Source: Zelonia costaricensis (lineage: Eukaryota > Euglenozoa > Kinetoplastea > Trypanosomatida > Trypanosomatidae). Taken from it: DNA of 28,816 nucleotides. How positions within the stretch are numbered: the first letter of the stretch is position 1; the number at the start of each line of letters is the position of its first letter. The position numbers and the translations under genes were made by a program. The stretch spans positions 1 through 28,816 of the forward strand of contig JASAOO010003208.1 in NCBI GenBank assembly GCA_030849075.1, in the 5' to 3' direction. A model generated the notes under the pieces. That model did no database searches. It was given only the letters and a program-made list of their open reading frames with translations, and was not told where the DNA came from. Positions 4,235-27,456 of the stretch are shown here, one piece after another.

Positions 4235-7200
4235 CTACAGATCCAGCACGTTGCTGAAGAAGGGGCTGTTGGGATCGAACCGAACCTCACCGTCGGCAAC
4301 GCAGAAGCACTGCGAGGCCTGCGCCGCCGTGGGCCGCTTCACCGGGTCGACGACGAGCAGCGAGACGACGAAGCTGGCGAACGCAAGCGAGTAGCGCTTG
4401 GCGAGGATGTCGTTGAGCATGCGCGACGCGAAGCCGTCCTGCTTCGCCTCCTGCGACATGATGCGCACGTTCTTGGCCACCAACCGGCACGTCGCCAGCG
4501 CATACAGGACGCAGCCTAGACTCCACACATCACTCGCCGTGCAGGTGCCGCCGTGCCAGCTCTCCGGCGCGATGTACGGCCGCGTGCCACCGCCACGCCC
4601 CCCGTGCGGCCGACCGTGCACATCCTGCAGGATGGCCAGGCCGAAGTCGGTGAGCACGACGGGGACGACGGCGCGGGTGATGCGGATGGGCGGGAGTGGC
4701 CCAGACGTGCCCATCGCCGCGGCGGCTGCCCGCACCGCCGCCGGAGTGAGAGACGGCGTCACCGGTGAAGTGGAGGACTTGTCCATGACACTTTGGTTTG
4801 CGCCGAGGCGGGCGTGGCTGGTGTTGCTGTTGCTGCCGTGCTCTCGCACAGCCGCTGTGGCGGGTCGCGCGTGCCCGTCCGGGGCAGCGCTCGCGGGGAG
4901 CGCCGCGTCGTTCGTCGTGGTCCAACTCTGCGGCGCCGCGGCCGCCACTGCCGCAGCGCTTGTCCTGAGGGTGCTCAAGTCGAGGTAGTCGGTCAGCTCC
5001 CCCTTGACTAGAATGTTCTCGGGCTTCAAGTCGCGGTGGATGATGGGCGGGTTCTGCCGGTGCATGTGATCTAGCACGGAGGCGAGCTGGTAGGCGATTG
5101 ACAGTAGCTGGGCCTCGGTCAGCGGGTTGTCGCTGGTGGGGTCCGCCTCGCCGGACGGCAGCTCGTGCGTGTCCGCGTACTCGTCCATCGCCGGCGCGGA
5201 GGGCTGGCCAGCGGCCCCCGCGGAGGCCACCAGCGGCAGCTCGCTGCGACTCGCCGCCGGCCGCATCCGCCACGTCGCCACCGCCGCCGCTGCAATGAGC
5301 GATGCCGCGGTGGTGGGGTCGCTGCTGCCGTCGCCATGCACGTCGGCCTGGGCGGTGGTGGAGGGCGAAGGGTGCAGATGCTGACACGGCACCGAGCTCC
5401 GCTCCGAGTCCTCGGTGGCCGTGTGGAGGGTGCTCGCACTGGTCACCATTGCCGGGGCCGGCGAAACCGCCGCGGAGGACGGGCTCGCCACGCTCGCCAA
5501 CCCGCTCACCACCCCGCCCCCACCCGCAGCGGAGAGCTGGGGACGCGGCGTGGGCGACGACTGCGGCTGCTGCTGCTGCTGTTGGTGGAGTTCGAGTTGG
5601 TGCTTGGCGCGCAGCGCGTAGCGGCAGAGGTCGCCCATCGGGTGGTACTCCATGACGAGGCACAGATATCCCGTGTCGCGGGCATCCAGCAGGAGACTCC
5701 CGCTGCTCGTGGTGGGCGAGTTCACGCTGGCCGACGTGGTGCTGCTCTTGGCGCCCCTACCCGTGGGGCTGCCCGACGGCGACGACGACGGCGCCGCCGC
5801 AACGCCGCCGCTGACGGCCTTCAGTGGCACCCCCGTGAGGGCTGCGACGGCGGCGGCGCAGGCGGCGTCGACGTGCGGGGGTGTGTGCGAGCCGGCGCCC
5901 GTGGCCGTCCACGCCTGCGGGGTGCCGACGTTGGCGTAGCGCACGGAGGGGCCCGCCACCGCAGCGGCTGACGCCTCCGCGGCAGAGCCAAACGCCGCGC
6001 GGCGCGCAGGAGAGGACGGCTGCAGCCCATCACGCGCGCGAGCCTCCTGCGCCGCGCCGTGGCACTTTGGCGTGCCAGGGCCATCCGTCATGCTGCCGCC
6101 TGCGAGCAGCACACCGAGGTTCGTGTACTGCGGCTTTGTGGGAGACGGGGCATCGTCGTACGGCGGGGCACTCGTGATTGTCGACCGCACGCCACCCACC
6201 GCCGGCTGCTGCTGCTGTTGGAGCGCGTGCAGGGGTGTGGGTCGGTGCGGGGCTTGCGCGGCGGTCACCGCCGCACTGACTGACACGGGCACGTGGATGT
6301 GCGGCTTGCCATCGTTCCCGTGCATGCGCTCGCCCTGCTGGCCCGCCCGCGCCGCGCGTATTGCGGCAGAGACGCTCAGGCGCCACCTCAGCCCCGCCTC
6401 GCCAGACGAGGCCGGGAAGGGCGCGCTGGTGTCGCCCCGAGCTGCGCCCACATCAGCCGACCCGCACGCGGTCGGCGAGGCGATGTTGGTGGGGTACAGC
6501 TCGGCCTCCTGCAGCTGCTTCTGTAGGTGCAGCTGCGAGGGCAGCGCGACGGACGGGGGTGAGAGGGCGGGCGGTATAAGGTTGCCGTAGCGCAGCGGCG
6601 CGTACGTGTTGCGCACCGCAGGGGCGGGGGTGGTGAGTGACGGCACCGGCGCGGCGGCGGTGTTGCGCGGCGGCGCTGCTGGTGCATACGAGCTTGGCGC
6701 CGCGCCATGCCCGTTGTACGAAAGGGGAGTGTTCGTGCCGGACGCAGACGACGATGCCGCCGCACCGCTCGTGGCGATGCCGCTGCTGGCCAAGGTGCTC
6801 GCGTTGCCGGTCTGCGTCACGCCATTCGAAGGCGTCATGAAGCTGCCATAAGAAGCCGGTGCCGTTGTGGCTGTGGCAGCCATCGACGCGCCGGCAGTCG
6901 GGCTGGGCGGCACGACGAGTCCGCTGTACCGAACACCACCGCGCGGCGCGTAGGAGGTCCGGGCTGGCGCCGGTGCCTCCTGTGCGTCGGTTGCGTGACT
7001 GAGGTAGGGGTTCACGTAGGCGCCGGTCTGGCGATCCCGCGCGAGGCCCACCGGCGGCGTCGGCATCGCGCCGCCAGCCTCAACCAAGGCGCCCGTCGCC
7101 GCTGCCTGTGCGCTGGGGGACCTGCAGTTGCCGTAGGACTGTGGCACAGGGCACACTCGTGCGACGCTTGCGTTGTGCGGTGGCTGCTGCTGCTGCTGCT

Positions 7201-8559
7201 GCTGCTGCGTCGCTACGAAGTTGGAGGACTCTCGGAGCATACCCGCCCACGACGCTGACGGGGGCGGTGGGGCGGGTGAACTTGGCGCGGCGGGAGACGT
7301 GTGCGCTGGCGTAAAGTCCTTATAGCGCACGGGAGCCTCCATCGGTACCGCGGTCCCAGCCGGCGCGGACGCGCGGGCCGGGGCGTACGTGGCCGCCGCC
7401 GCCACCGATGACGTCTGCAGTGGCAGCTCGCGTGATGCCGCCGGTGCCGACGCATGCGGGCTTCCGGCGTTGGCGACGGGGCTGGACGGCGCGTAGGATG
7501 GGGCGGGCGATGTCGCAGTGCGAGTGTCTGCGGCGGCGGCAGACGGCGGCTTCAACGCGGTCGCCGCCGTTGCAAGCGGGAAGTTCGAGTAGCGGTTGCC
7601 AGCTGGTGCCCCGCCGTTCATGGCGCTCCTCGCTGGTGCGTAGCTGGCGAAGGTGCTGGCCGTTGCGGTCGCCGTCGTAGCGGCTGCCACGTCGGGCGTG
7701 CCAACCGCCGTCGGCGGGTGCGCGGGCGGCGTGGCTGGCGAAGACGTCCGCGGTGCCGCTGCCGTTGCCGCCGCAGGTGACGCAGGCGGCGGGTGCATGA
7801 AGGAGGGCGGCGGGACGAGAATGCGGTGGATCGGCTGGGTCGGCTCCTCCTCCTCTCCACTGGTGCTCGTCACGCTGGAGCTGCTGCCGGTGCCTGCGTC
7901 GTGTGCCGAGGCGGTTTCCGCAGCGTCGCCTTCGTCCTCTGCCTCCGCGCCCTCCGCCGCGCTGCGCTCGGCGCTTGTGTCACCGCCTCGACTCGTTCCT
8001 GTGTGCAGCGCCGTCCCGCTCAGGCCCCCTCCACTGATCGCCGCTGTCGTGGTTGTCGCGGCAGCCGTGGCCGACACCGCCCCCGCCTCCGTCGCATCCC
8101 CCTCCACGTCCTCCACCTCAGTCACGCGCTCGCACGCGGGCGAGAGACACGCGTCGGCACCGGCGGCGCGCGCGAGGGCGCCGCGGCTCGAGAGGGGCGC
8201 TGTCGATCCGATGCGGGGGCGTCCGTGCGAGGCTGCGGGGACTGCCCCAGGGCTTCCAACGCTGCTGACATGCGTGTTAATGTTGGGTGTCTTGCACCAG
8301 TAGTCTGCTGCGGCAAACGTGGTAGCAACGGCAGCAGCAGCAGCGGTGGCGGTGGTGGCGGCAGGGGTGCCGAGGCTCGTGGGCGACACACCGAAGGGGT
8401 GCGCAATCAGGTTCACGCTGCTGCTGTTGCTGCGGCTCGCACGTTGCATGCTGTACTGCAGCGAGCGGCCATCGAACGAGGAGGCGGAGGCGGACGCGTT
8501 GCCGCGCCACGTGCCCTGTTGCGACTGCGTTGTCTGCACCGGCTGTGTTCGTGTTTGCG

Positions 8560-8596
<37 letters not shown>

Positions 8597-11080
8597 GTGC
8601 TCGCGGTGCTGACGTTGCTGGCGCTGCTGCTCTCGCTGACGCCGCCGCTGTCGCTGCAGCCGCCGCGCGTCGACGAGAAGTCGCTCTGTGTCCGCCGCAC
8701 TGAGGATGGGCTGCTCCGAGGACGCCAACCCATCGCAGTCTGCGTGGACAGCTGTGCCACGACCACTCGCGGCGTCGCTCTCGTCCACGTAGCCCAGCCC
8801 TCCCGCCGTGGACGCAAACGAGCCATCTTCGTCCTCGTCGACTGCGCCGCGCGCCGCCGCTGCTGGTGCTGCTGCTGCTGCCGTTGCCGCAGGTCTGCCG
8901 CGACTACCACCGGCCCAGCACGCATTGAGCCGCGCGCCCCCACTCCCCTCCTCCCCTTCGTCGCCGGAGAGGGACTGGCGTCCGTGCGCAGGGGTCGCCC
9001 GCTGCGGCACGGCCACGCCGAGCCGGCGGATGCGCGACTGCAGCGCTGCCGTCACCTCCGCGTCGTCCAGCCGCGTTGCACTCGCCACCTTGGTCATGAC
9101 CGTGTCGCCGAGACCCTTCAACTGCACCCCCACCCACCGCGTCGTTGCCGGGGACGCCTGCGGCAACACCAGCGATGTCGACACCGCAGTCGCGCTCGTC
9201 GCAGCAGAGGAGGGCCGTGCCCCCGAGGTCGCGGGTGCGGCGGCGTGCTGGCGCGGATGCGCTGCGGGCGGTGCGGCCTCTGCGACGACAGCCGTGGGCT
9301 TCGCGGCCTCGACGGGAAACGAGCGAGCAGCGCCGGACTTCTCCTCGCCCGCTCCCCCCGTCGGCGAGGCGGCAGCGCCTTGGAACTGATAGTTCATGAA
9401 CATGTCCACGATGCGTATCACCTGGGGGTGACCCTGCAACGTGTGGATCAGCTCGCACTCCCGCAGCGCCGCGACCCGCTCGCGGTCGTCCTTGCACAGG
9501 ATGTACTTGAGTGCGTACCGCTGACCTGTTGTCTTGTGCTGGACGAGGTAGACGGAGGAGAAGGCGCCGGTGCCGATGCGCTGCAGCAGCCTGTAGCGCG
9601 AGTCGTGCGTGGTGTTGTAGACGACCTTGTCCTTCTCCGTGGTGGCCGTGAAGACCGGCAGCGACGCGGTCGGCGTGGTGGCCGTGGCGCGTGCCGCCTC
9701 CTGCGCGGCGGCGCGTCGTCCGCTTGCCGAGGCGGGCTGCAGGCTGCCGTGCGTCTCGCTAGCGCCGCAGTCGGCGCTGTCGTGACCACGACGAGAAGAA
9801 GGGGGCACCCCGGCGGCACTGACGCTGGCCTGGCCACACGCAGAGGTCCCCGGTGCAGGTCGCACCGCCGCCGCGGCGCGAGGTCGCCGTCCTGCATCGT
9901 TCCCACTGCTGCTCCTGCTGCTTCGGCCGCCGCGGAGGCTGCCGTTGCGGCCCACCAGGGTGGCGGCAGGACTGTGCCGGTCTTGCCGGCCACGCCGCCG
10001 CGCCGCCGCCGCACACGGGGAATCGACGTCGTCATCGCCGCCGAATGCCCTCGCGTCTTCGAAGCGCCGCTGACCAGCTGCGGTGGAGCTGCTGCCCCGC
10101 TCGCGTGCAGCGTGGCGACGGCGCCAGCGGGGGTGGCGATAGCGGCCCTGACCTTCATCGGAGCTGCGCGCGGAGCCGGCACTGTCTTCGTCGTCGTCGC
10201 CAGTGGTGGACGCGTCGCGGCGATGCCCGTGTGCGGTGGCGCTGACACGAAAGAGAATCGTAAGCGCGTCGATCACGCCCATCGAAGCGGGGGCGGCCGT
10301 CGGTGAGTACGCGGTGTCACGTGCCTGTGATGCTGCTTGCCGGCGCCGGCGTCCACCGCCGTGGCCGCTGCCGTCCCTGCGGCCGGTTTCGGTGGTGGCG
10401 CCGAGGAGCGGCTGCGCTTCGTCCAGCGCGTAGCCTGTGGCGGGACCCCGTCCACGGGCGCGCCGTGCGCTATCGCGTGCCGCTTCTCTGTCACCTTCTA
10501 TTTCCACCACCTCCTCCGCCTCGTCGTCCCTGAGATACGCGTCATTGGCGCTGTCGTCGACGTCGACGCGGGCGCCATACACCTGCCGCGGGTGTTGCTG
10601 TTGTTGTTGTTGTTGCTGCCGTCGCCGTCTTCCAGCCCGTTCAGCGCGCGCGGCCTCGGCCACCGCGGCCGCGGATGCCACGCGCTTCAGCAGCCGCACG
10701 CCGAGGATCAGCACGACGACGAGCACCACAAGAAGGGTGCACGCCACACTCGTCGCCACAAGCAGCGCGTCGAATGCGTAGACGCCACTGGCGGTTGTAG
10801 TCGTAGTCTCTGGTAACACCAGGGCATATACCCCGGAGGATTCGTTCGCAGCGGACACGTCCAGTGGTTTCAGAGTGAGCGACGGTGATGCAGGCGGCGC
10901 TGTCGTCCTGCGAGGGGTGGGCGACTGCACCGCGCGCTGCATGACCGGCTGTGGCGATGCAGACGCGGTGGGGGCGTGGGGATACGATCCGGTGCTGGCG
11001 TGGTCCGAGCGTGCGATGGCCGAGGAGGGGGAGGGAGATGGGAAGTGGGAGGCGCTGAGGGGTCGTGCGGTGGCGTGCAT
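4235..11080 (-). CDS. Membrane protein kinase with a giant insertion in the kinase domain
   Basis: 2281 residues. A strongly hydrophobic single membrane span lies at about 105-130, preceded by about 100 Ser/Pro/Ala-rich residues with no signal peptide and followed by a basic poly-Q juxtamembrane segment. The kinase domain spans about 495-2260: Gly loop GTGAFS (503-508), VAIK-type Lys525 (YALKYILC), alpha-C Glu543, HRDLKPEN with Asp2017, DFG at 2145-2147, APE at 2171-2173, then DVWSLG. All catalytic residues are present, so a Ser/Thr kinase activity is predicted. The domain is interrupted by about 1240 residues between beta4 and beta5 (about 560-1800), 155 between alpha-D and alpha-E, and 105 between the catalytic loop and DFG. 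These inserts are low-complexity, with poly-Q runs and a repeated Tyr motif. By eye the N-lobe recalls NAK/STK16- or STE-type kinases, but the family is not assigned. The frame is open from a GTG at 11110; the first ATG after the splice site is 11080. It resembles the next two genes upstream but has no kelch ectodomain. Confidence 0.93.
5920..7660 (-). repeat. Degenerate Tyr-Ala-Pro / Arg-Tyr motif array in the kinase insertion
   Basis: Within the giant insertion (residues about 1140-1720) two short motifs recur. YAP occurs at least six times (FASYAPAR, APSYAPSS, ATYAPARA, TSYAPRGG, SSYAPAAP, NTYAPLRY). An RY-x-x-[FLV] type occurs at least five times (NRYSNFPL, VRYKDFTP, VRYSGLVVPP, LRYGNLIPP, VRYANVGTP), with looser forms QSYGNCRSP, ASYGSFMTP and PQYTNLGV. 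The two types often sit as pairs, for example NTYAPLRYGNLIPP. The surrounding sequence is Ala/Pro/Ser-rich and shows little other conservation. Confidence 0.7.
8561..8596 (-). repeat. Poly-Gln coding repeat in the membrane kinase
   Basis: Alternating CAA/CAG codons encode about 12 consecutive glutamines in the beta4-beta5 insertion. Other Gln runs in the same protein are encoded near 7180-7207, 6207-6222, 5566-5582 and 10590-10618 (juxtamembrane). All remain in frame. Confidence 0.85.
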
Positions 11081-11131
11081 GTGCGATGATGCTGTCGACA
11101 CCCAATGCACACAACCACACTTACACCTAGC

Positions 11132-11143
11132 CTAAAAGAAAAA
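11132..11143 (-). promoter_or_regulatory. Trans-splice acceptor of the membrane kinase gene
   Basis: On the minus strand TTTTTCTTTTAG (11143-11132) is a compact pyrimidine tract ending directly in AG. Splicing here gives a 51-nt 5' UTR with no ATG before 11080, so it decides the start codon and rules out the GTG at 11110. No transcript data are available here to confirm it. Confidence 0.65.
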
Positions 11144-12028
11144 CCTGTGCTGATGGAGGTGAGCGTTCCGCTGCACGCGCCGGGAAAGAACAGTGAGCGG
11201 GCGTCTGAATGCAAGATACCGTTGATCGACCACGCCAGTGTGGGCGAAGCTTGCTGACACGCTGGCAGGGGAAAGGAACAACACAACACACACACAACAT
11301 GCACACACACGACAAAGGCGAGCTGTGGGCAGCGGTGTAGGGAGGTGATGGAGGATAGAGGGGGTGGGGCCCCCCCTAGCGAGATGGAGGGGAGGAGTGA
11401 CGCGTGCGCTGATGTACTTCTACGCACACACGGGGGGAGGAAGGGAGACGCGATGCCACGCCGGGAAGGTGCACAAAGGCGTGTAGGGGGCAGCGGCTGC
11501 TTAGGTGAGCGTCGCTGCCGGTGCTAGCCGTTGCTGCGCGTGCTGCTGCTGCTCCGGCGTGTGTAGAGAACATTCAAGCGGAGGTGAAGAAGCAGGAGTG
11601 GGAGGTGGCGGTGATGACGTCGCCGATGACGTGGCGTGGCGAAGGGGCGCTCTCACTGCTGCTGGCCTTGGTGCACGCGGGAAGGGGACAAAGCCACACG
11701 TTCGCGATGCGGCGTAAAACCCGGCGAGGTGAGGCGAGGGGAAGGGTGTGTGGGCCTCGGGTGCGACGGACCGCTGCCGATGGCGACTGCAAGGCGGAGC
11801 GTCGCGCGACGAGTGATGCCTGATGCGGTTAAATGTCTGTTTGGCGGTGACGTTGTGGGAGGGGCGGGGGCCAACAAGGTGCCGCGCGCCAGCAATAAAT
11901 AGAAACTGCTGAGCCTGGCTCACGACACACAACGCGCGGAGGCAATAGGGAAGCTGAAGAGAGCGAGGTGGAGACGGGGAAGGGAGCGCCACACGGAGGC
12001 GAAGTAGATACACGGATACGAACATACT

Positions 12029-12031
<3 letters not shown>

Positions 12032-12071
<40 letters not shown>
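12032..12071. repeat. (CA)20 microsatellite in the kelch kinase 3' UTR
   Basis: An uninterrupted run of 20 dinucleotides that reads (UG)n in the transcript and begins 30 bases after the stop codon at 12102. Its position parallels the tract after the pseudokinase gene. Confidence 0.9.
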
Positions 12072-12074
<3 letters not shown>

Positions 12075-12101
12075 ACCCGCACAGAAGCTGGTGCAACGCG
12101 A

Positions 12102-15100
12102 TCAGAGGTCGTGTGCGTCGAACCCCGCGCGGGACGGGCTCGACATCGGCATCGCCGTCGAGGTGCTGGACGGCACGAAGGTCGAGGGCACCACTTCTGA
12201 CGCCACCCCCATGCTGCGTGCGCCGGCGCTGCAAACGCTGCTGTCCACTCTGTCCTCCGGTAGCGCCGCCACAGTCGAGATGGACACATCGACGCGCGCG
12301 TTGTGCACCGCACGGTGCGACACGGACGCTGCGTGTGGGCCACTGCTGGGGACGTCGAAGCCTGCCGCCAGCTCTCCGCTCGGCGGAGGCACCGTGCTCG
12401 CCACCCGCGTGAGCAGCTCCGACGAAGGCGGCGACGGCGGCGTGCGCCGGTGCGCGGCGGCACTGCCCGTCACGACGCCCTCGACGTTGCGATGGTGCGC
12501 AGCAGCGTCGTCTTCGTCTTCGTCTTCGTCGTTTGTCTGATGCGAGATGGCGAGCGAGACGTCTTGGGACCCGTGGAGCGGCTCCAGCGGCGAGTCCTTC
12601 TTCTCGGCGGACGTGTGCATCTCCTGCTGTCCCTGCTGCTGCGGCTGCTGTTCGCCTTGCAGCACCGACGTGAGATGCGGAGGCACGTGATGCAGCGTGG
12701 TACCCTCGCGGGTGGGCGCCAGTGTCGCCGACTTGTCGCCGCCCATGGGCGTGTCCGGACCATCCGGGGTGTACGCCGGGGTCTCCGAGGACGGCCACGA
12801 CACGTCGCGGTCGCCCAGCAGCAGCAACGGCGTGGCCGCCGCTGTTGCCGTGAACGCGTCGGTGCGGCGCAGGGGCTCGCGGGAGGACGTGGAGGAGCCG
12901 AGGTCGGGCTGCGACACGGCGCGCAGGAGCGACGCCAGCGGTGGCCCATCGAACACGGACTCGCCCGCGGTGTTCGTGGCGGGCCGCCGCAGCATGCGCA
13001 GTGCCTCGGCGGCGGTGGGGCGGTCGTCCGGCTTGACGGCGAGCAGAGCCGTGATGAACCACGCCAGTGCGGGGCTGTAGCCGTACACGTGCACCACCTC
13101 GTCCCGGAGGCGATCGTGGAAGTCGGCCTGCGCGCACTCGCTGAACATCACCTTCACGGTGCTGCTGTCGACCCGCTTCGAGCACACGGCGTAGAGGACG
13201 CAGCCGAGGGCCCAGATGTCGACCTTCGTCGAGTACCGCCGCTGCCAGCACTCCGGCGCGACGTACGGCAGCGAGCCCACACCTGTCTCACAGAAGGTCT
13301 TGTCCATCACCCGCGAAAGCCCGAAGTCTGTCACGACGATGGGCAGGAAGTACTCGTTGACGTCCTCGTAGTGCACGTGCGAGGTCAGCAGAATGTTCTC
13401 CGGCTTCAGGTCGCGGTGGATGATGGGCGGGTGGTGGCGGTGGTGCATGTAGGCGAGCAGCGACAACACTTGGAAGCCGATGCTAACGATGGTGGCCTCG
13501 GGGATGTACGGCTGCAGCGCGCGACGCTGCCGCACCCACCGGGCGAGGTCGCCGCGCTCGTGGTAGGCCATGACGAGGCTGAGGTAGCGCTCCGCCTGCA
13601 GCGCGTGCCGGCCACCACCCCGGCTACCGCCACCGCCGCCGCTGCTGCTGCCGCTCGGGCTGTCGTAAGTGTGCGTGGCGGCGGTGTTGCCCTCCGCGCG
13701 CTGCAGACGTGGGGTGGTCGCGCCGCTGCTGGCATCGGGGTCGCGCAGGATGCCGGCTGTCATGGCGTCGAGGTACTCGCTATTCATGTGCACGACGGCG
13801 CGGTGTGACGCGGAGGTGGCGTTCGAGTTGCACTCCGTCGACGGGGCGGCGGCCGTCACTGGTGTGGCTCCTGCCGCCGCTGCTGTCATCATGGGCGTCG
13901 TGCTTGGACTCGTTTTCGGTGTCGTGCTCGTGCTGGGCGTGGAGACTGTGATAGTGGCGATGGTGGTGGCGGCGTGCTGGCTGACCGGGTTCGCCTCCGC
14001 GCCGGCGATGTCGCTGGTGGGGTTGAGCAGGGCGGTGGTCGCGCTGCTGCTGCTCACGCCGGCGCTCGAGTCCTCGTCCACGACCGAGGTGGTGCGGTTG
14101 GGCTGCTGCTGCTGCAGCTGCTGCGGCGGTTGCTTGTCGTGGACGTCCAACTTGCACCGATGCGTGCCGCCACCGGCGTTGGCCTTGCTGGAGCGGCCGT
14201 CACGCTGGCGGGCCGCGACACTGGAGCCTGGCACGGTGACCATGTGTCGGTCAAACCGGTACGACATGAACATGTCGAAGAGCTGGATAACATTCGGGTG
14301 CCCCTGCAGCGCGTACACGACCTCGCACTCCTTCATCGCCTCGTGCCGGTCCACGTCGTCGCTGCACTGAACGTACTTGAGGGCGAAGCGCTTGCCGTCG
14401 GTGATGCGGCGGACGAGGTAGACGACGGAGAAGCTGCCCTTGCCCAGCTTGCGGATGACTTCGTACTTGCCGTCCAGCAGGCGGCGCCGGGTCGCGGCCT
14501 CGGCGGGGCTGTCGCTCCCGTCCCAGCCCGCTCCGCCAAGACCGAGGTTCGCGAGTCCGGGCACGCCCACGCCGGCCGCCGCCAGCGCCGCCTCGTACTC
14601 ATCCGGCAGGTCCTCGAAGCCAAACCGCTCCACCGCACTCCCCAACCCGGCCACCGCCGCCCCACCCGCCCCTACGCCGACTCCACCACCACCACCACCA
14701 CCAACACCACCACCACCGGCGCCGAGCAGGAACGTGCGTGCCTCGCTGTACGGCAGCAGGCCGCGCTGCGGGTCGTCGCCGTCGTCCAGCATGTCGTCCT
14801 GGCCGCCCCCCACCCGGCGGCCGCCGCCGTTGCCGCCACCACCGCCGCGGTGCATCTTGCGGAGCACGTGCATCGGCATCAGCGCGAACGACCCGAGGAT
14901 GCCGGAAAGGATGACAACGAGCAGCACGACGCAGATGGTGAGCAGCATCCAGGGGCGCAGCAGGTGCGTCGACGGCGCCGGATCCGGGTTCGGCGTCGGC
15001 GGGTCTGCGCTGTCGCTGCTGTTGTGGTCGTCACCGCCATCGCCGTCGCCGTGCTCGCGTGGCGTCCACGTCAGCACCGGCGAGAGCACAAGCGCCTTGC

Positions 15101-18129: not shown

Positions 18130-18144
18130 GAATTCAAGATTGCA

Positions 18145-19344: not shown

Positions 19345-20102
19345 TCTTGCGCACCGAGGCAAGTCGTGCGAACTAGTGTGCAGTGCGTGCACGGCAAGTC
19401 AGAGGCTTGCCAGGGCGGCGCGTGACGGTGCCGCAAAGGGGCTTGAATGTCTTCACGCGGTGAAGTGGAGCCGAGGGCGCCGGTGGACCGAAGCGTCCTC
19501 CCTTTCTGAGCTTGACGGTGCGACACGAGGGGCGGCGAGGCTCGGAGGAGGGGGGGGGGGAGGGTGCGCAGCGAGGTGACACGGTTCTCCTATCGGGGTG
19601 GTTTCATGTCGGGGACGCGAGAACGGGAGTTGCAGGAGGCCAAGGCAGGCACACACGCACACATACACATACACACACACACACATGCACACACATGCAC
19701 ACACACACACCCAACACGAAGAAACAAGCGACGAGGAGTGATGGTGGGTGAGCAACGCCATACTCACCACACGACAGCCGGGGACACGAGCAGCAGGGTG
19801 AGGTGGAGGGGGGGAGAGACCGAGGAGGAGGAGAAGACGCGAGCTCGTGCGTGTCACGGGGCGGCGGTGGAGGAACACCGCAGTGACACACGTGCGCCCA
19901 CCTCGCGTGTACACGAGCGAGGGTGTGTGGAAGGGGGAGGGGGGACAGGCACGCCTGCGGAGTCACAGAGGGCCGCCGCTGGCACGACGGAAAGAGGAGG
20001 ATGAGGGGAGGGGCAGGGGAGGGAAGACACAGCTGAGTTCATTCGCGTGTGTGTGTGTGTTTGACAAGGTCTTTTTTTCTCTTCTCGATAGCAGACGCAC
20101 AA

Positions 20103-20137
20103 ACACACACACACACACACACACACGTACACACACC
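20103..20137. repeat. CA tract immediately after the pseudokinase stop codon
   Basis: A CA run (20103-20126) and a second short run after a GT step (to 20137) start about 8 bases beyond the stop at 20146 and read (UG)n in the transcript. This is the most stop-proximal example of the repeated pattern in the cluster. Confidence 0.85.
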
Positions 20138-20145
20138 CAGGCACT

Positions 20146-23100
20146 TCAGCGTCGACTTCGAAGGGCCATGTGCGCGGTCGCCTCGTCGAGCACCACGGCG
20201 GAGGCCGCCTCGCTCGTGGCGGACCAGCCGCCGCCGCTGCCGCGCGTGGCCGGCGCTGCGCCGCTGCCCTTTTCGCTCTCATCACTGAAGACACCGCTGC
20301 CCTCACCGAACGGGGCTGCCGTGACAGTCCCACGCGCGCCGTTCGGTGAAGGCGTGGCCGGACGCAGCGAGCCGGCCGGTGCCAGCACGACAAGACGGAG
20401 CTGGTCAATCACCGCGGCGGCACTTGGCCGGCGTGCCGCGACGGGGGACAGCAGCGCGGCCATGAGCGCCGCCATGTTGCGCGAGTACCCAGCATCGCGA
20501 AACACGCGTGCCACCTCGTCCTCGACGGCGCAGGAACGTGGCCAGCGCGTGCGATCGCCGGCTGCACCGGTCTCGTCGTTGTTGTCGTCGCCGACATTGC
20601 TGTCGCCCTTGTCCAGCTCTTCGGGGCTGCCGCTGTGGGAGGGCCGCCCCGGAGGATCGAGGCCGCCAATGCCGCCATCGTGCCGCGCTGTCGCCGCTGT
20701 GGTTGCGGTGCAAGAAGAGTTAACTGCCTCACCGGCGGCGGCAGCGGCGATCCCGGCGGACACGTCGCTTGTCTTGGCGAGGTCGAACAAGTCGCCCAGC
20801 AGCGCCGCGAAGGCCCGCTGCGCCAATCCCGACGCCGCACTGCAGCCCACCAGCGCAAGTGCCGCCGCCGCGGCGGCGTCTACGCGTGTGCCGTTCGTCT
20901 CCTGCGGCGGCGGCGGCAGCGGTGATGTTGGCAGCTCCGTCATGTCGTCCACGCAACTCGCGTAGAGCAGCACGCCTAGACTCCACAAGTCGCTGGCTGT
21001 GTCCAAGGCAAGCACGCGCTGGACCAGGAGCGCGTACACGGTGGAGGAGCCGCCGGAGGCGCCGTTGCCACTCGCCACGGAGCCGCTCGTCTGTCCACGC
21101 AGCAGCCCCGGTCGGACCGCCGACGCGTTGCCGTGCGGCATCGATGGCTGGGCCGATGCCGCAGCAGGGCGGAGCAGGGGTGAGGGGAAGCGTGAGCTGG
21201 GCTGGGGTGCAACAGGGGCGGAAGAGTCCGGCAGCGGCGGGGCATCAGGGAGGCTCGACGGCACGCCTCGGCTGGTAAGAGTTGAGTCGTGCGGCAGCGG
21301 GAGCAACGCCGCTTCCGGGATAGGGCTGCCTGCTGCAGCTGCAGCGACACCCAATGCGTGTGCGGCCTCTGACGGTGAAGAGGACGCCGCCACCACGCCC
21401 GGCTCCAAGCCCGTTGCGGGCACTGCCGCGGCGCCCGGACGATGATGCTGCGGTCGCTGCGGGGGCTCACGAGGCCGGCTGCTGCGCGGGACGCGGGTGA
21501 GCCCCTCGGCACGCCACATCGCCGTCGTCAGCGCCACTACCTCCGCCCGAGTGAAGACAGCTGTCGCAGTGTTGATGCTGCTGCTGCTGCCCACCTCGTG
21601 GTCGACGTCCTCGTCGTTGGTGGCTTCGGTGGTGCTGTCGCTGGCGCGGGACTCGGCGTCGCTGTCGACGGCGCTGAGGGGGCTGCTGACGCGGCCGTGC
21701 GCGGAGGCGCGCTGTGGCGAAGGTGAGGGTGGGGCTGGCGCGGGTAGTGCGGCACCAGTGCGACACCCGTTGGCCACTGCCCCTTCGCCACCCGCCAGCG
21801 ATGGCGGACTGGGCAACCCAACGCCGTCCATCGCGTCCGAGCGGGGCTCCGCAGCGAGGCCGCTCATGAACGACACGGGCATCGCGTCAACCGCCGCAAC
21901 CGCCACTACGCCCGCCGCAGCAGCGCGGTACGTCCGGTCCTCCCGCCCACCGCCGCCACCGCGCGCAGCGCCACGGCGGCGCCTGTGGTGGACGCGCGAC
22001 GTCGAGCCCGACCCGGCCATCACTGCCGCGTCGTCCGGCAGTCCCGGCTCCTGCGGCGTGAGAGAGCAGAGTCGCCCCCACAGCAGCTCCGGCGCGATGT
22101 GCGTCGGCACGTCGATAAAGGTGAAGAGAAAGTGCGCGAGCGCCGCCACCGCATGGTCGGACGGGGTGGCGGACCGCGCGCGATGGGAGCCGGTGTGGAA
22201 GTGCGGGGAGGGCGGCGGGGAGGTTGGGACCGTGGGGCTGACGCACGACTCACGAATCGGTGCCTCGTGGCGGCGGAGCCAGCACTCCCCGGCGGCGGTC
22301 TGCCGCAGCGTGGAGCGCGTGGTGCGCCCGAAGCAGCCGCGCAGACGTTGCGGCAGCTCGATCGTCAACCACCACGACATGCCGCCGTCGGCCAGGCTGA
22401 TGGGCACGTAGGTTTGCGAGCGCAGCGGCGCGGATGCCTTGCTGGGCCGCGTGCACTGCTGCTCCGCGGGCGCCATCAGGGACGCGTGGGCCGCGCCCGG
22501 CGACCCCCGCCCCGACCCGTCCTGCGTCCCAGCGAGGGACGGTCGGTGCGTGGTGGCCCCCGACAAGTCCGGCGGGGTGTGCAGCGTCGGCGAGCCGGCG
22601 CCCCACGTCGTCGCTCCCGCCGCAGTCGCCACGAGCCCGCCCGACCCCCACCGCGATCCGAACACCGCCGCGGCGGCGGCTGCCGAGGCCGGGCCGCGCG
22701 CGGAGGCGGGGCGGGAGAAGCGCGGCGGCGGGGAGGCGGACCGCGGCTTGGCGCGCGTGCTGCCGCGACTCCCGCTGGGGCCGGCCGCCGGACCGCCCGG
22801 ACTGCCCTCGTCCCACTCCACCCCGTCCGCCGCCGCTGCCAGCGCCTCTACCGAGTCCACCGCCACGACGCGGCGCCGGGCTACGGAGAAGATCGCCGGG
22901 TCGCGGAGCAGCACATTCGTGCCGCGAACATTGCCGTGCAGGATGGGCGGCGACTGGGCGTGCAGCAGCCGCAGCCCGGCGCAGACCTGGAACAGCAGCG
23001 AGCACAGCAGCGACTCCGTCCAGCGGTGCTGCACCGAGGTGACAGGTGGCAGCGCCCCCGCAACGCTGCCCTCACCCGCGAGGGAGGACCACGCCGCACC

Positions 23101-26100
23101 CGCACCCTCGTCCACGCCGTCGCGCGGCCACTGCGGCCGTGTCTGGAGGCACCGGTGGATCATGTCGGCGAGGTTGCCGGCGCGCTCGTATGGCATGACG
23201 AGGCAGAGGCTCCAGGGGCTGACGGTCGTGGGCTGCAGCGGGTTCACACACGCGGCCCAGCAGACGCGTGGGGCCGGCAGTGCCCAGAAGGGCATGGGCT
23301 CGCTGGCGGTCTCGCGGCTGCAGCGGCGGACCGTTGACCGCCACCGCTGCACGCTGCGGTGCCGCCGGGTGCGCCGCGGGTACGCCGGGGGGTCCTCCTG
23401 CGCCTCGGCCTTCTCGGCGCCTCTCTCCAGCGCGTCATCGATCCCGGGCCACACCTGCGCGGTGTTCCACCGCACGGCTGCCCGGCAGACACTCCGCGCG
23501 GTGAGGCACGGCCCCTGCGTGTTGCGGGCGTGGTGGCTCGTCCACCACGACGAGCCCGGCCACGCCTCTGCCCCCGTGTAGCCCTGGTGTGGCTGCCGGA
23601 AGCGGTGCTGCTGCTGCTGTTGCTGCTGGAGGTGGTGCAGCTGATGGAGGACGCTGACCTCGTACGACACGAACAAGTCTTCTGGAAGCAGCAGGAACAG
23701 CGAAAGGACGATGCTCACCTCATGCGCTTCCAGCCAGGCGCAGGCCCCCGGCACGTCGCCGTCTGCAGCCGCGCCGCCGTCCCCATCGCCGTCGCGCTCG
23801 ATGTCGCGTGTCATCGGGCTGGGCATCGGCGGGGCGCGGTGACCGGCGCCGGCGGGAATGTCGTACGCGCCGTCGCGGCGCTGGCCCCCGACCTGTCCGC
23901 TGGTGCGAAGGCTGTACCGTGGCGCGCCGCCCATCCGGGCTGAGCTCACCGTGGCCGCGGTCGCCACAGCGTCCGCCTGCAGGTCGCGCAGCCGCTCGCA
24001 CAGCCGTGTAATGACCGCGCGCGTGGCGTCGTCGGGGCACTGCGTGTACTTGACAATAACCGCCATGTTCTGCTCGTGCCGCGCCGCCCACAGCGCCGAG
24101 GCCCGACTGGCCATGAGGGGTGCGGCAGTGCCCGATGTGCGGGGGCGCGCGCCGGTCGGGAAAGGGGCGATGGTGCGCGTGAAGGGCGTGAGCCGCCGCA
24201 GGGCGTTGGCTGCATCGGCGAGGGTCGCCATGACGCCCCCGCTGCTGCCACCGCCGTGGTGGCCTGTCGCGGCTCCTCCCCCTTCCAGTTCGTGCGACTG
24301 CGGCGATGGCGAGTACAGGGAGCCGTAGGTGTTGCCGGTGTTGGTGTTGTGGTTGTGCGTATAGTGGTGCGGCGGTGGTTGACGGTCTGGGCGCTGCTGC
24401 GGCAACGGCGGTGGAGGAGGTGGCAGGGCCTTGCGCAGTGCGAGGAGGCAGAGCGAGTAATCGCCCTGGCCGATGCGAGACAGCACGCGGTAGCGGTGCT
24501 GATGCAGGCGCAGCACGTCCGCCGCGGTCACCAGCAAGCGTGCCTCGCTGTCCTCTTCGGCGGTTGCGAGCACGTACAGGAACGCCGCACGGGTTGTGAT
24601 GGGCTGGGGCCAGTCATCGACGTCGTCGCCCCCATCGAACCCGCCAACCACGCGCCCCTCGGCTGCTGCGAACGCCGCCGGGGCGTGGCCGCCGCCGGAT
24701 GTCGGCCAGTCGCACAAGCCGCTGCCCCCATCCACGCTGCCGAGACTGCCGCGCAGCAGCCACGCCCGGCGACTCCGCCGCTCCGCCGCACCGGCACGCC
24801 CGCCGCTGCCGCGCGATGGCGCCGCGCCCGCACGGCCGTCACTGCCGTCAGCACCACCACCAGCACCACCGGCGGTGGCGACCCCGATGACCGGGGGCGC
24901 ACCGTCTCCGCCAGCGAGGAAGGGACCTGTGGTGAGCAGCCCATCCTCCGGCACGTGCTGCAGCCGCGCGACGAGCAGCACGGCGACGAGCAGCGTCACC
25001 ACTGCCACCGACACGGCGAGCATGAACAGCGGGGAGCTCGTCGTGCGGTCCGCGGGGTCGCGCGTGGGCGCCGGCGTCGGCGCGCTTGTGGTTGGGCTGT
25101 TATCCAGGATGCGGAGCGGCATCATCGGGTTGAGGTTGGAGAAGGTCCGCTCGCTGCGGCACACCGACCACAAGATGGGTTGCACGTAGTAGCCGAAGCA
25201 CACATACACCGGGGTCGTGCTGCCGCTGGCGCTGAAGCGTACCACGGCGCTGGGGCGGCCGTCGTGGGCGGCGTCGAGGGTGCCGGCGGTGTTGCCGACG
25301 CAGTCGCGGCGGCTGCTCAGCCGCACGGCGCACACCGCCTCGGCATCCGCAGCTGCGCCGTACTCCGGTTCGCCACGCTCTTTCCATGTGCAGTACTGCG
25401 TGTAGTCGGCGTTGGCAAAGGCCAGCTCGATGATGCCCTCTGACGTGGTCTGCAGCGTGAGCGCCTCGGGCCAGATCGGCGTGGGCATCATCAGCGCGAG
25501 GAGCTCGGGTCGCCCGACGTCGAAGCTCGCGTCCGGCAGCTGACGCAGGGCCCAGCGCTGCGCGGGCTCGCGGCGCACAACCGTGTCTGAGAAGTCAAGT
25601 GCGTTGCCGATGTAGGACCGTGCCATGCGGGGCACTCCGTGACCCTCCGCGACCTCGAGGCGTGCTGCAGCTCGACGCGCGTCCGTCTCCTGCGTCCAGA
25701 CATCCTCGCCGCCGAGGGCGTGGTAGACAAGCGTGATGCCGCTGGCGGGGTCCGTGTGTGTGCTGTTGCCCCTAATGGGCGCCCCGGTGCTCGATGTGGC
25801 CCGCGTGAAGGCGAGGGCGACGAGCGTCGGCCGCATCCAGGAGTAGTGGTAGACCGGCGGCGGCGGCGGCGGTGCTGTCGAAGTGGTCGTTGTTGTTGTT
25901 GTGGTGGTGGTGGTCGTCGTGGTGGATCCCGGAGACGAGGATGCGGATGCCGACGAGGCCGCGCCGTGTACGCTGCTGGAGGTGTCCTCGCCACCGACGC
26001 GTTTAACGCAGCGCGCGTGCCGAGGCAGCAGCGCACGAGAAGCGAACCCGGGCGTCGACAAGACAGTGCGCCGCGCGGCTCGCCCGCTCGAGGTCGCCCG

Positions 26101-27456
26101 CACGTCGAGCACGGCGATGTGATCGAGGTTGTGGTCGGTGAGCACCACCTGGCCTCCAAACACGTGAACGTGACAGCCGGACGGGGAGAGCAGGATGTCG
26201 TTCACGGCGGACTGCGGCAACGCTGAGGACGGCACAGAGAACTGGCAAACGCCATCGCCGATGCCTCGCACCGCTGCACCACCGCGGCGTGGCGCTTCGA
26301 CTGCCGCCGCCGCGAGGGTGGCCTCGCTTCCGAAGAAAAGCAGGTCGAACAGGTACGGGGTCACGGGCCGCGGCGGAGCCGGCGCCCGAGTCGTCCGCTC
26401 CACACGCGCCGTTCCATTCACTGGACGCTCGCGCGCCCCCGCCCACTCAAACGTCCAGCCGCCCGTGATGGCGGCCAGGCCGGTCGACGTCGCCACGGAC
26501 GGCTGCAGCACCGGCTCGCTCAAGTACGCCACGTCGGACTCGTAGCGGCGCGTGACGACGTCGAAGGCGTCGACGCTCGCCGTGACACGCCCGCTGGAGA
26601 GCAGGAAGCCGCCGACGATGAGAATTCGGTTGGCGCTCGGCATCGCGGTGCAGCTGGCGTTCACGCGCACGCGGTCCAGCGGGACCTCGAAGTACGTCAA
26701 GTTCACCGCGGCCGTTCCCGTGGCAGAGGACCGCGCCGCTGGCGTGCTGAGGTGCGGGCCGTGTGAGGCGCCACCCTCTTCGGGGTAGAGGGCCACCACC
26801 GGCGCGTACGCCGCCTGCAGAGCCGCCAGCTCCGACTCCGTCATATTCGCGATGTCGACGGGCGAAAGCGAGCTCATGGTGCAGCTGCGCGCCACGTAGA
26901 CGCTGTCGGTCAGCGTCACGGCAGCGTGTCGGCCGGCAAAGCCCAACTTCGGTGGCAGAGTGAGCCGCGGCAGCCCCACGGCCGCCCCCGTCTCCACGCT
27001 GAGCGCGATGGAGCGCACGTGGTACGGTGAATCCCGGTCCTCGCTGGAGGGCGTGCCGATGGGTGTGGCGCAGGTGGCCGTCACACACCCGCCGAGCAGC
27101 ACGATCGAGTTGCTCAGCACGGCGATGGCCGGGTAGAAGATGGGATAGGGTAGCAGCGTGTCGTTGAGGGTCTGCCACGGTGCAGCCGGCGTGGCGGGGG
27201 GGAGGGGATCGGTCACGCGCAAGTGCGCGTGCGCCACGATACATGGCCCCACCACCAGTGAACCGGGAGCGGGGACAAGCAGAAGAGCAGCGAGAAGATA
27301 TAGAAGAAGCGGCACACACGCAGGCCGGGCGCCGCGCGCTGCTCGCCACCGCGGCACGGCGAAGTTCCCTCGTCGGGAGAGGAGCCCTGCCACATAGACG
27401 GGTGCAGCATGAGTGGCGGCAGCGCCATGCTGCAGTGCCTCCGCAGCGACGCGCAT
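20146..27456 (-). CDS. Receptor-like transmembrane pseudokinase with kelch-like ectodomain
   Basis: 2436 residues. A hydrophobic signal or anchor (about 47-70) follows a basic N-region. The ectodomain (about 71-811) has kelch-like cores at about 115 (IVLLGGC), 278 (ILIVGGF, then VDAFDVVTRRY), 325 (AAITGGW) and 428 (VHVFGGQ), plus a poly-Thr/poly-Pro hinge at about 512-533. The membrane span is at about 812-835. The kinase-like domain spans about 988-2360 with several long inserts: Gly loop GQGDYSLCL (996-), with Cys in the usual Val position; Lys1136 (VIVKYTQC) and Glu1154 retained; the HRDLKPEN equivalent is HGNVRGTN (1507-1514), so the catalytic Asp is Asn1509; DFG is DGG (1690-1692); APE (1788-1790) and DLWSLG (about 2157) are retained. 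Loss of the catalytic base predicts no or very weak phosphotransfer, while fold landmarks and nucleotide-contact residues partly persist. It appears to be a diverged paralogue of the next two genes. The frame is open throughout, so it is a maintained gene and not a decayed one. Confidence 0.93.
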   Translation of the reverse strand: MRVAAEALQHGAAATHAAPVYVAGLLSRRGNFAVPRWRAARGARPACVPLLLYLLAALLLVPAPGSLVVGPCIVAHAHLRVTDPLPPATPAAPWQTLNDTLLPYPIFYPAIAVLSNSIVLLGGCVTATCATPIGTPSSEDRDSPYHVRSIALSVETGAAVGLPRLTLPPKLGFAGRHAAVTLTDSVYVARSCTMSSLSPVDIANMTESELAALQAAYAPVVALYPEEGGASHGPHLSTPAARSSATGTAAVNLTYFEVPLDRVRVNASCTAMPSANRILIVGGFLLSSGRVTASVDAFDVVTRRYESDVAYLSEPVLQPSVATSTGLAAITGGWTFEWAGARERPVNGTARVERTTRAPAPPRPVTPYLFDLLFFGSEATLAAAAVEAPRRGGAAVRGIGDGVCQFSVPSSALPQSAVNDILLSPSGCHVHVFGGQVVLTDHNLDHIAVLDVRATSSGRAARRTVLSTPGFASRALLPRHARCVKRVGGEDTSSSVHGAASSASASSSPGSTTTTTTTTTTTTTTSTAPPPPPPVYHYSWMRPTLVALAFTRATSSTGAPIRGNSTHTDPASGITLVYHALGGEDVWTQETDARRAAARLEVAEGHGVPRMARSYIGNALDFSDTVVRREPAQRWALRQLPDASFDVGRPELLALMMPTPIWPEALTLQTTSEGIIELAFANADYTQYCTWKERGEPEYGAAADAEAVCAVRLSSRRDCVGNTAGTLDAAHDGRPSAVVRFSASGSTTPVYVCFGYYVQPILWSVCRSERTFSNLNPMMPLRILDNSPTTSAPTPAPTRDPADRTTSSPLFMLAVSVAVVTLLVAVLLVARLQHVPEDGLLTTGPFLAGGDGAPPVIGVATAGGAGGGADGSDGRAGAAPSRGSGGRAGAAERRSRRAWLLRGSLGSVDGGSGLCDWPTSGGGHAPAAFAAAEGRVVGGFDGGDDVDDWPQPITTRAAFLYVLATAEEDSEARLLVTAADVLRLHQHRYRVLSRIGQGDYSLCLLALRKALPPPPPPLPQQRPDRQPPPHHYTHNHNTNTGNTYGSLYSPSPQSHELEGGGAATGHHGGGSSGGVMATLADAANALRRLTPFTRTIAPFPTGARPRTSGTAAPLMASRASALWAARHEQNMAVIVKYTQCPDDATRAVITRLCERLRDLQADAVATAATVSSARMGGAPRYSLRTSGQVGGQRRDGAYDIPAGAGHRAPPMPSPMTRDIERDGDGDGGAAADGDVPGACAWLEAHEVSIVLSLFLLLPEDLFVSYEVSVLHQLHHLQQQQQQQHRFRQPHQGYTGAEAWPGSSWWTSHHARNTQGPCLTARSVCRAAVRWNTAQVWPGIDDALERGAEKAEAQEDPPAYPRRTRRHRSVQRWRSTVRRCSRETASEPMPFWALPAPRVCWAACVNPLQPTTVSPWSLCLVMPYERAGNLADMIHRCLQTRPQWPRDGVDEGAGAAWSSLAGEGSVAGALPPVTSVQHRWTESLLCSLLFQVCAGLRLLHAQSPPILHGNVRGTNVLLRDPAIFSVARRRVVAVDSVEALAAAADGVEWDEGSPGGPAAGPSGSRGSTRAKPRSASPPPRFSRPASARGPASAAAAAAVFGSRWGSGGLVATAAGATTWGAGSPTLHTPPDLSGATTHRPSLAGTQDGSGRGSPGAAHASLMAPAEQQCTRPSKASAPLRSQTYVPISLADGGMSWWLTIELPQRLRGCFGRTTRSTLRQTAAGECWLRRHEAPIRESCVSPTVPTSPPPSPHFHTGSHRARSATPSDHAVAALAHFLFTFIDVPTHIAPELLWGRLCSLTPQEPGLPDDAAVMAGSGSTSRVHHRRRRGAARGGGGGREDRTYRAAAAGVVAVAAVDAMPVSFMSGLAAEPRSDAMDGVGLPSPPSLAGGEGAVANGCRTGAALPAPAPPSPSPQRASAHGRVSSPLSAVDSDAESRASDSTTEATNDEDVDHEVGSSSSINTATAVFTRAEVVALTTAMWRAEGLTRVPRSSRPREPPQRPQHHRPGAAAVPATGLEPGVVAASSSPSEAAHALGVAAAAAGSPIPEAALLPLPHDSTLTSRGVPSSLPDAPPLPDSSAPVAPQPSSRFPSPLLRPAAASAQPSMPHGNASAVRPGLLRGQTSGSVASGNGASGGSSTVYALLVQRVLALDTASDLWSLGVLLYASCVDDMTELPTSPLPPPPQETNGTRVDAAAAAALALVGCSAASGLAQRAFAALLGDLFDLAKTSDVSAGIAAAAAGEAVNSSCTATTAATARHDGGIGGLDPPGRPSHSGSPEELDKGDSNVGDDNNDETGAAGDRTRWPRSCAVEDEVARVFRDAGYSRNMAALMAALLSPVAARRPSAAAVIDQLRLVVLAPAGSLRPATPSPNGARGTVTAAPFGEGSGVFSDESEKGSGAAPATRGSGGGWSATSEAASAVVLDEATAHMALRSRR
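22930..22938 (-). other. Degenerate catalytic triad codons (HGN in place of HRD)
   Basis: These three codons encode His1507-Gly1508-Asn1509, aligned with His-Arg-Asp in the two neighbouring kinases (ILHGNVRGTN against IIHRDLKPEN). The invariant catalytic Asp is replaced by Asn and the following Lys by Arg. Confidence 0.88.
25883..25924 (-). repeat. Poly-Thr coding repeat in the pseudokinase ectodomain
   Basis: Fourteen consecutive Thr codons (a mixture of ACA, ACC and ACG), then Ser-Thr-Ala and six prolines, at residues about 512-533. The run lies in the predicted extracellular part and resembles an O-glycosylated or phosphoglycan-type spacer. That reading is inference. Confidence 0.85.

What the first reader, a model, noticed from the sequence alone, without database searches (positions are those of the whole stretch)
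4235..27456. Tandem cluster of three paralogous receptor-like transmembrane kinases in a trypanosomatid
Three consecutive minus-strand genes each have one membrane span followed by a kinase-type domain. Shared details point to tandem duplication: Lys-Tyr-x-x-Cys-x-Asp-Asp after beta3, Cys-Glu exactly 18 residues after the Lys in all three (525/543, 1226/1244, 1136/1154), a D-[ML]-F-[MV]-[NS]-Y motif ending beta4, and an insertion directly after it. Trypanosomatid kinomes are known for lacking classical receptor tyrosine kinases and having few membrane-spanning kinases, so a clustered family of this kind would be a notable candidate surface-signalling system. T. brucei RDK1 is, as I recall, a membrane-associated kinase affecting differentiation; whether it is related is unknown.
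Basis: partly seen in the sequence, partly recalled or inferred. Interest (0 to 1): 0.9.

Follow-up and report, generated by a model that had tools for sequence, protein, structure and literature searches.

The report
Sensor and kinase split between genes
Three neighbouring genes of a trypanosomatid (a single-celled parasite group) encode related kinases with one predicted membrane span each; one has a large predicted outer domain but lacks the catalytic aspartate, another has the catalytic residues but no such outer domain, so the two likely work together as the two halves of one sensor.

Summary
In detail: three minus-strand genes (4235-11080, 12102-18053, 20146-27456) encode paralogous single-span kinases sharing motifs found in 0 of 60 other kinase domains sampled from this genome. 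The reading needs correcting. Gene 2 is a complete Kelch-propeller/span/kinase protein, related to a T. brucei kinase that is probably the published, ER-located Tb927.5.3150. Gene 3 has a Kelch-like outer domain and a degenerate kinase (HRD is HGN in 10 of 12 orthologues, QGD in 2; DFG is DGG/DAG in 12 of 12). Gene 1 has an intact kinase but no outer domain in 14 of 14 proteins outside Trypanosoma, whereas its two T. rangeli relatives carry one. Searched against this genome, a T. rangeli protein comes apart: kinase to gene 1, outer domain to genes 3 and 2. In two Leishmania species genes 3 and 1 have consecutive locus tags, and no named Leishmania protein was among the gene 2 hits. Likeliest mechanism: gene 3 senses and allosterically drives gene 1, like trypanosomatid 'prozymes'. 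The pairing is inferred; the kinase tree does not resolve it. Published locations favour endomembrane over surface. New variant of a known kind.

The parts
20146..27456 (-). Gene 3: outer domain, span and degenerate kinase, 2436 residues
27250..27306 (-). Gene 3 N-terminal hydrophobic stretch, likely signal peptide (residues 51-69)
   Evidence: hydrophobicity only
25033..27219 (-). Gene 3 outer domain, Kelch-like (residues 80-808)
   Evidence: Kelch_1 in 9 of 12 orthologues at E up to 0.1, best 7.1e-4; profile match to gene 2 ectodomain; genome search finds only itself and gene 2. Fold prediction failed
24961..25026 (-). Gene 3 membrane span (residues 811-832), unusually conserved
20383..24507 (-). 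Gene 3 degenerate kinase domain with large inserts (residues 984-2358)
22930..22938 (-). HGN in place of HRD (residues 1507-1509)
22381..22389 (-). DGG in place of DFG (residues 1690-1692)
12102..18053 (-). Gene 2: complete Kelch/span/kinase protein, 1983 residues
16224..17762 (-). Gene 2 Kelch propeller (about residues 98-610)
   Evidence: Kelch_1 hit; model and fold matches
14886..14954 (-). Gene 2 membrane span (residues 1034-1056)
12984..14480 (-). Gene 2 kinase domain with one large insert after beta4 (residues 1192-1690)
4235..11080 (-). Gene 1: short N-terminus, span, intact kinase with very large inserts (frame opens at 11110, first ATG 11080)
10697..10771 (-). Gene 1 membrane span (residues 114-138)
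4295..9613 (-). Gene 1 kinase domain including inserts (residues 500-2272); HRD at 5030-5038
11132..11143 (-). Pyrimidine tract ending in AG, a likely trans-splice acceptor about 50 bases before the gene 1 ATG
   Evidence: sequence read; function inferred

Best explanation
Three tandem genes encode related kinases with one predicted membrane span each; gene 3 has a predicted Kelch-like outer domain and a kinase domain without the catalytic aspartate, gene 1 has the catalytic residues and no such outer domain, and the two likely act as the sensing and the catalytic half of one receptor kinase in an inner membrane. Proposed working: the outer domain of gene 3 (inferred to lie in the ER or secretory lumen, or outside) binds a ligand; its well conserved membrane helix and its degenerate kinase domain, which keeps the Lys, Glu, Asn and Asp that normally hold ATP and magnesium, would contact the gene 1 helix and kinase and switch gene 1 on, as dead paralogues do for two trypanosomatid polyamine-pathway enzymes. 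Gene 2 would be the undivided form that senses and phosphorylates by itself. Shown: motifs, domain content, conservation, pattern of presence. Inferred: orientation, location in this species, ligand binding, pairing, activation, and that gene 1 lost an ectodomain rather than never had one.
For: Gene 3 lacks the HRD Asp in 10 of 12 orthologues and the HRD Arg and DFG Phe in 12 of 12, yet keeps beta3 Lys, alpha-C Glu, catalytic-loop Asn and DFG Asp in 12 of 12, and its kinase blocks stay 82-87% identical: a kept, degenerate kinase. Gene 1 catalytic residues are intact in 16 of 16 while its span starts by residue 135 in 14 of 14 proteins outside Trypanosoma (the fragment P0046 lacks that end). 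The gene 1-type T. rangeli proteins P0047 and P0048 have the span at 608 and 505 behind a Kelch ectodomain (P0047, Kelch_1 9.6e-10). P0047 against this genome: kinase to gene 1 (8.4e-55, 62%), outer part to gene 3 (residues 62-283, 1.1e-5) and gene 2 (212-289, 1.8e-6), none of the 34 rows upstream of gene 1. C[IV]GNxAGTxD: 2 of 2 T. rangeli, 11 of 12 gene 3, 0 of 17 gene 2 ectodomains; GGC-x(3-7)-C[AT]TP: 1 of 2, 8 of 12, 0 of 17. Genes 1 and 3 share an insert before alpha-E (128-189 residues in the 13 of 16 measured; 47-56 in 12 of 12) where gene 2 has 19-20 (13 of 17 measured). Gene 3 span 85% identical against 55% for the gene 1 span in five matched species, and 82% against 38% for gene 2 in three. 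Consecutive locus tags of genes 3 and 1 in L. sp. Namibia (07630/07631) and L. martiniquensis (07192/07193). Precedent: deoxyhypusine synthase activated by a dead paralogue (PMC3663545, abstract).
Against: The kinase tree joins genes 1 and 2, not 1 and 3 (95/90); 1+3 is merely not rejected (p-AU 0.36), and 2+3 is not rejected either (0.26). The ectodomain tree has no outgroup, so its 100/99 split shows only that gene 2 ectodomains are one group. By BLAST the T. rangeli ectodomain scores slightly higher with a gene 2 protein (62.4 bits, 106 columns) than with any gene 3 protein (55.8 bits, 265 columns), though a second matched piece occurs with gene 3 proteins only. The whole gene 3 outer part is better conserved than that of gene 2, not the span alone. 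Two gene 3 orthologues keep the Asp (QGD). No call shows an interaction, an activity or a location in this species.
Confidence: 0.42

Rival explanations
1. The three paralogues diverged long ago and act independently: gene 2 a sensor kinase, gene 1 a membrane-tethered kinase without a sensor, gene 3 a ligand-binding scaffold or decoy.
For: Best kinase tree has gene 3 outside genes 1+2; each gene is a clade of its own (99-100). No interaction data.
Against: Complementary loss pattern, shared insert and ectodomain motifs of genes 1 and 3 and consecutive tags in two Leishmania species.
Confidence: 0.3
2. Gene 3 partners with gene 2, or with both, as a pseudokinase co-receptor of the complete Kelch kinase.
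For: Ectodomains of genes 2 and 3 are homologous; 2+3 is not rejected by the kinase tree (p-AU 0.26).
Against: No named Leishmania protein is among the gene 2 hits, while gene 3 is kept in Leishmania (8 named rows with Leishmania or Porcisia names). The gene 2 span is poorly conserved.
Confidence: 0.13
3. One reading: three surface receptor kinases of one kind.
For: Shared architecture of genes 2 and 3, spans, sequons denser on the outer side (10 in 1036 against 2 in 927 residues in gene 2; 6 in 811 against 3 in 1605 in gene 3).
Against: Gene 1 lacks an outer domain, gene 3 lacks catalytic residues, and published locations of the T. brucei Kelch kinase and of LmxM.08.0530 are ER/endomembrane. 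Jensen et al. could not exclude that some protein reaches the plasma membrane.
Confidence: 0.08
4. Gene 3 is still an active, atypical kinase.
For: Lys, alpha-C Glu, Asn and DFG Asp kept in 12 of 12; Asp at the HRD position in 2 of 12.
Against: HRD Arg and DFG Phe changed in 12 of 12, HRD Asp in 10 of 12; 66-92 residues between DFG and APE against 17 in gene 2.
Confidence: 0.07

Closest known systems
T. brucei Tb927.5.3150, Kelch-bearing transmembrane kinase (PMC8519429; a Kelch-bearing 'unique' T. brucei kinase is also in Table 2 of PMC1266030)
   Same: Signal peptide, Kelch stretches, span, C-terminal kinase, as in gene 2. P0012 (T. brucei, found with gene 2) is probably this protein; no call ties the id to the sequence.
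   Different: Papers describe one such gene in T. brucei, not a trio; neither the degenerate-kinase member nor the ectodomain-less member is described in what was read.
LmxM.08.0530 (L. mexicana 'Other/unique' kinase, endomembrane, not deletable; PMC7902614, PMC11684651)
   Same: Chromosome 8 kinase, as are the Leishmania relatives by the tag LdCL_080010200 (gene 3); annotated 'protein kinase', so probably gene 1.
   Different: Identity with gene 1 or gene 3 not established here.
Trypanosomatid prozymes, e.g. deoxyhypusine synthase (PMC3663545)
   Same: Dead and live paralogues kept together; the dead one activates the live one.
   Different: Metabolic enzymes, not membrane kinases; activation is unproven here.
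Receptor pairs with a pseudokinase, such as HER3 (recalled, no call)
   Same: A sensor with a poor kinase would drive an active partner.
   Different: Tyrosine kinases with their own ectodomains; here the active partner has none.
STK16/NAK and NEK kinases
   Same: N-lobe profile of genes 1 and 2 scores best with STK16 (9.5e-14); gene 2 C-lobe with NEK2 (3.5e-18).
   Different: The two lobes point to different families; kinome papers class such kinases as 'unique'.

Membership tests
Kelch transmembrane kinase (Tb927.5.3150 type) | Kelch propeller in the N-terminal part | tested here: met
Kelch transmembrane kinase (Tb927.5.3150 type) | One span between outer domain and C-terminal kinase | tested here: met
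   Genes 2 and 3 by hydrophobicity, also in relatives.
Kelch transmembrane kinase (Tb927.5.3150 type) | ER/endomembrane location | not testable with these tools
   Only published locations of relatives.
Pseudokinase (gene 3) | Missing catalytic motif residues | tested here: met
   HGN in 10 of 12, QGD in 2 of 12; DGG in 11 and DAG in 1 of 12; Lys kept 12 of 12.
Pseudokinase (gene 3) | No phosphotransfer activity | not testable with these tools
   Needs an assay.
Receptor tyrosine kinase | Kinase domain of the tyrosine kinase group | tested here: not met
   Pkinase outscores PK_Tyr_Ser-Thr (156.5 against 77.1 bits gene 2; 121.8 against 56.7 gene 1); the 60 rows shown are Ser/Thr-type kinases. 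In gene 3 PK_Tyr_Ser-Thr is the better of two weak scores (22.5 against 12.0).
NEK or NAK/STK16 | Best match to one family over the whole kinase domain | tested here: inconclusive
   C-lobe NEK2, N-lobe STK16.
PERK-like eIF2 kinase (PEK) | Best match to eIF2 kinases (insert after beta4 alone is not enough) | tested here: inconclusive
   None seen as a full kinase among 60 rows shown of 1230 and 60 of 607.
RDK1 (STE11-like membrane kinase) | Kinase domain groups with RDK1 | not tested
   RDK1 was not identified or placed in a tree; architectures differ by the papers.
Prozyme pair | Dead paralogue binds and activates the live one | not testable with these tools
   Only the dead/live pattern was seen.

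The most novel reading that the evidence does not exclude
A receptor kinase has been cut in two by gene duplication and complementary decay: gene 3 is the sensor whose kinase died and became the allosteric switch, gene 1 is the kinase that shed its sensor, and together they form a two-subunit transmembrane receptor, a 'receptor prozyme', which is what Leishmania keeps of the trio.
Probability: 0.35. Interest if true: 0.85.

Novelty: new variant of a known kind. Interest (0 to 1): 0.6.

Why it matters
Trypanosomatids have few membrane-spanning kinases (ten predicted in T. brucei, PMC8519429), and how they sense their surroundings is largely open. A locus that sets a pseudokinase with an outer domain beside a live kinase without one, found in Leishmania and insect relatives, would give a concrete, testable signalling unit and a natural case of a receptor divided by duplication. 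A chromosome-8 kinase that probably belongs here could not be deleted in L. mexicana (PMC7902614, PMC11684651).

Tried and rejected
(a) Gene 1 as a truncated or misassembled gene with its ectodomain upstream: none of the 34 rows of the P0047 search lies between 11110 and 12102, a pyrimidine tract with AG stands about 50 bases before the ATG, and 13 other proteins share the short form. (b) A further member elsewhere: the nearest other kinase, own_L079 on contig C112, stands beside the family (joined to it at 96 in the quick tree, 98/93 in the careful one; set apart from it at only 77 and 90/79), but has neither motif and no Kelch region is evident in its 602-residue frame, which was only read by eye. 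(c) Joining genes 1 and 3 by the kinase tree: not obtained, not rejected. (d) Fold of the gene 3 ectodomain: prediction failed (pLDDT 40.5), so not searched. (e) PERK-like eIF2 kinase: considered for the insert after beta4; inconclusive. (f) RDK1 kinship: 8 cyclase (PF00211) matches lie on contigs without a kinase match, so no RDK1 candidate was picked out. (g) Other Kelch kinases in this genome: 9 Kelch_1 stretches, none in a frame that one search lists; that search did not list gene 2 either, so it is not exhaustive. (h) Literature: searches (open-licence papers, supplements not available) turned up no description of the trio; Tb927.5.3150 and LmxM.08.0530 were the only leads.

Full report
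WHAT IS THERE. The window is bases 1-28816 of contig C398 of an unnamed 28.7-Mb genome. Three long minus-strand frames encode proteins of 2291 residues (2281 from the first ATG), 1983 and 2436 residues. In order of transcription they are gene 3, gene 2, gene 1. Pfam finds kinase domains in genes 1 (4.5e-35) and 2 (1.1e-45), only a trace in gene 3 (8.3e-5, just under the curated cut-off), and a Kelch motif in gene 2 (2.7e-4). Each has one strong internal hydrophobic span.

KINSHIP. Homologue searches gave 21, 11 and 16 proteins for genes 2, 3 and 1; in each only about 7970 candidates were scored. Named gene 2 relatives are Novymonas esmeraldas, Leptomonas seymouri, L. pyrrhocoris, T. brucei, T. 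cruzi (and T. c. marinkellei), T. grayi and T. rangeli. Of the 21, P0020-P0022 are gene 1 types and P0023-P0024 lack the family's motifs by their annotation; these five were not put into the gene 2 alignment. Gene 3 relatives are Leishmania species, Porcisia, Leptomonas, Novymonas and one unnamed; gene 1 relatives are Leishmania, Leptomonas, unnamed proteins and two T. rangeli proteins, the fragment P0046 being left out of the alignment. Kinase trees: a quick one with 26 of the 45 family rows and all 60 own kinases and a careful one with the same 26 and 21 of the 60. Each gene is a clade (99-100). The three together stand apart at 90/79, with own_L079 next to them. Genes 1 and 2 are sisters at 95/90; genes 1+3 (p-AU 0.36) and 2+3 (0.26) are not rejected. 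One L. seymouri protein of each gene shares a contig of 280173 bases; so do genes 2 and 3 of Novymonas (270790) and genes 1 and 2 of L. pyrrhocoris (429499), so the cluster is likely older than this genome.

GENE 3, OUTER DOMAIN WITH A DEGENERATE KINASE. In 12 orthologues beta3 Lys, alpha-C Glu, catalytic-loop Asn and DFG Asp are kept 12 of 12; HRD reads HGN in 10 and QGD in 2 (P0033, and P0034 of L. seymouri); DFG reads DGG in 11 and DAG in 1. 66-92 residues lie between DFG and APE, 17 in gene 2. Three kinase blocks are still 82-87% identical on average, so the domain is kept. The outer domain is a weak Kelch match in 9 of 12 at E up to 0.1, matches the gene 2 ectodomain by profile over 160 columns (96.3% probability), and finds only itself and gene 2 in the genome (8.5e-5). 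It has 11 invariant Cys in about 810 residues, against 10 in about 1600 on the other side, a mild hint only. The span is 85% identical in five matched species, that of gene 1 55%; in three matched species 82% against 38% for gene 2. The rest of the gene 3 outer part is also better conserved than that of gene 2 (64 against 51 and 39%), but less than its span. A span that conserved suggests specific helix contacts (inference).

GENE 1, KINASE WITHOUT AN OUTER DOMAIN. Catalytic residues are kept in 16 of 16. The span starts by residue 135 in 14 of 14 proteins outside Trypanosoma, but at 608 and 505 in the T. rangeli ones, which carry a Kelch ectodomain (P0047: Kelch_1 9.6e-10; P0048 is 87% identical over that part). 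P0047 against the genome comes apart: kinase to gene 1 (8.4e-55, 62%), outer part to gene 3 (residues 62-283, 1.1e-5) and to gene 2 (212-289, 1.8e-6), nothing directly upstream of gene 1. By BLAST among ectodomains the best single score is with a gene 2 protein (62.4 bits over 106 columns); gene 3 proteins give up to 55.8 bits over longer stretches, plus a second piece near the membrane that gene 2 proteins do not give. Two motifs are shared by T. rangeli and gene 3 ectodomains and absent from 17 gene 2 ones, two of which are incomplete. Genes 1 and 3 share an insert before alpha-E that gene 2 lacks. The ectodomain tree has no outgroup and cannot decide.

MECHANISM. The reading that fits most of this is duplication followed by complementary decay, with the two halves still working together. 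Trypanosomatids do this with metabolic enzymes: deoxyhypusine synthase is activated 3000-fold by a dead paralogue (PMC3663545, abstract). In the two Leishmania species where both tags are visible, genes 3 and 1 are consecutive, and no named Leishmania protein is among the gene 2 hits (several hits are unnamed). No Trypanosoma protein is among the 11 gene 3 hits. LmxM.08.0530, a chromosome-8 'unique' kinase, is endomembrane and could not be deleted (PMC7902614, passages; PMC11684651, passages). It is likely gene 1, as gene 3 is named 'conserved hypothetical' in L. mexicana and LmxM.08.0540 is 'hypothetical protein, conserved' (PMC5678721, passages), but no call ties these ids to the sequences. 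Shown: sequence content and conservation. Inferred: orientation, location, sensing, pairing, activation.

VERDICT. A real, conserved trio. The full Kelch kinase is known; a pseudokinase with an outer domain set beside a live kinase without one was not found described in the searches made. New variant of a known kind, with a bold and testable mechanism whose key step, the pairing, is unproven.

Noticed in passing
window 2440-3492, minus strand (frame opens at 3711): A fourth gene downstream of the trio: a protein with a weak LYR-family match (Complex1_LYR, 0.013, under the cut-off) and a basic N-terminus from Met 74 that looks mitochondrial (read by eye).
   Followed up: partly
gene 1 inserts, about window 5570-9365: Short repeated stretches around Tyr-Ala-Pro and Arg-Tyr-x-[Asn/Asp] stand in otherwise unconserved inserts; one (TSYAPxGGxRY, near 6926-6961) is largely invariant in 16 of 16 including T. 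rangeli. They could be docking or phosphorylation sites.
   Followed up: no
contig C112 (L081), 602-residue frame: The kinase nearest to the trio in the trees has a Cys-rich, zinc-finger-like N-terminal part and no evident span (by eye).
   Followed up: no
gene 3 orthologues P0033 and P0034: In L. seymouri and one unnamed relative the catalytic loop reads QGD, so the Asp is kept while His and Arg are gone; elsewhere it is HGN.
   Followed up: partly
window 7793-10306, plus strand: An 837-codon open frame antisense to gene 1 without any Pfam match; probably a by-product of high G+C.
   Followed up: partly
own-genome Pkinase scan: The three window genes are not in the list of 133 kinase stretches (117 of 190 candidates scored), probably because inserts break up the domain, so kinome counts made this way can miss such genes.
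   Followed up: no
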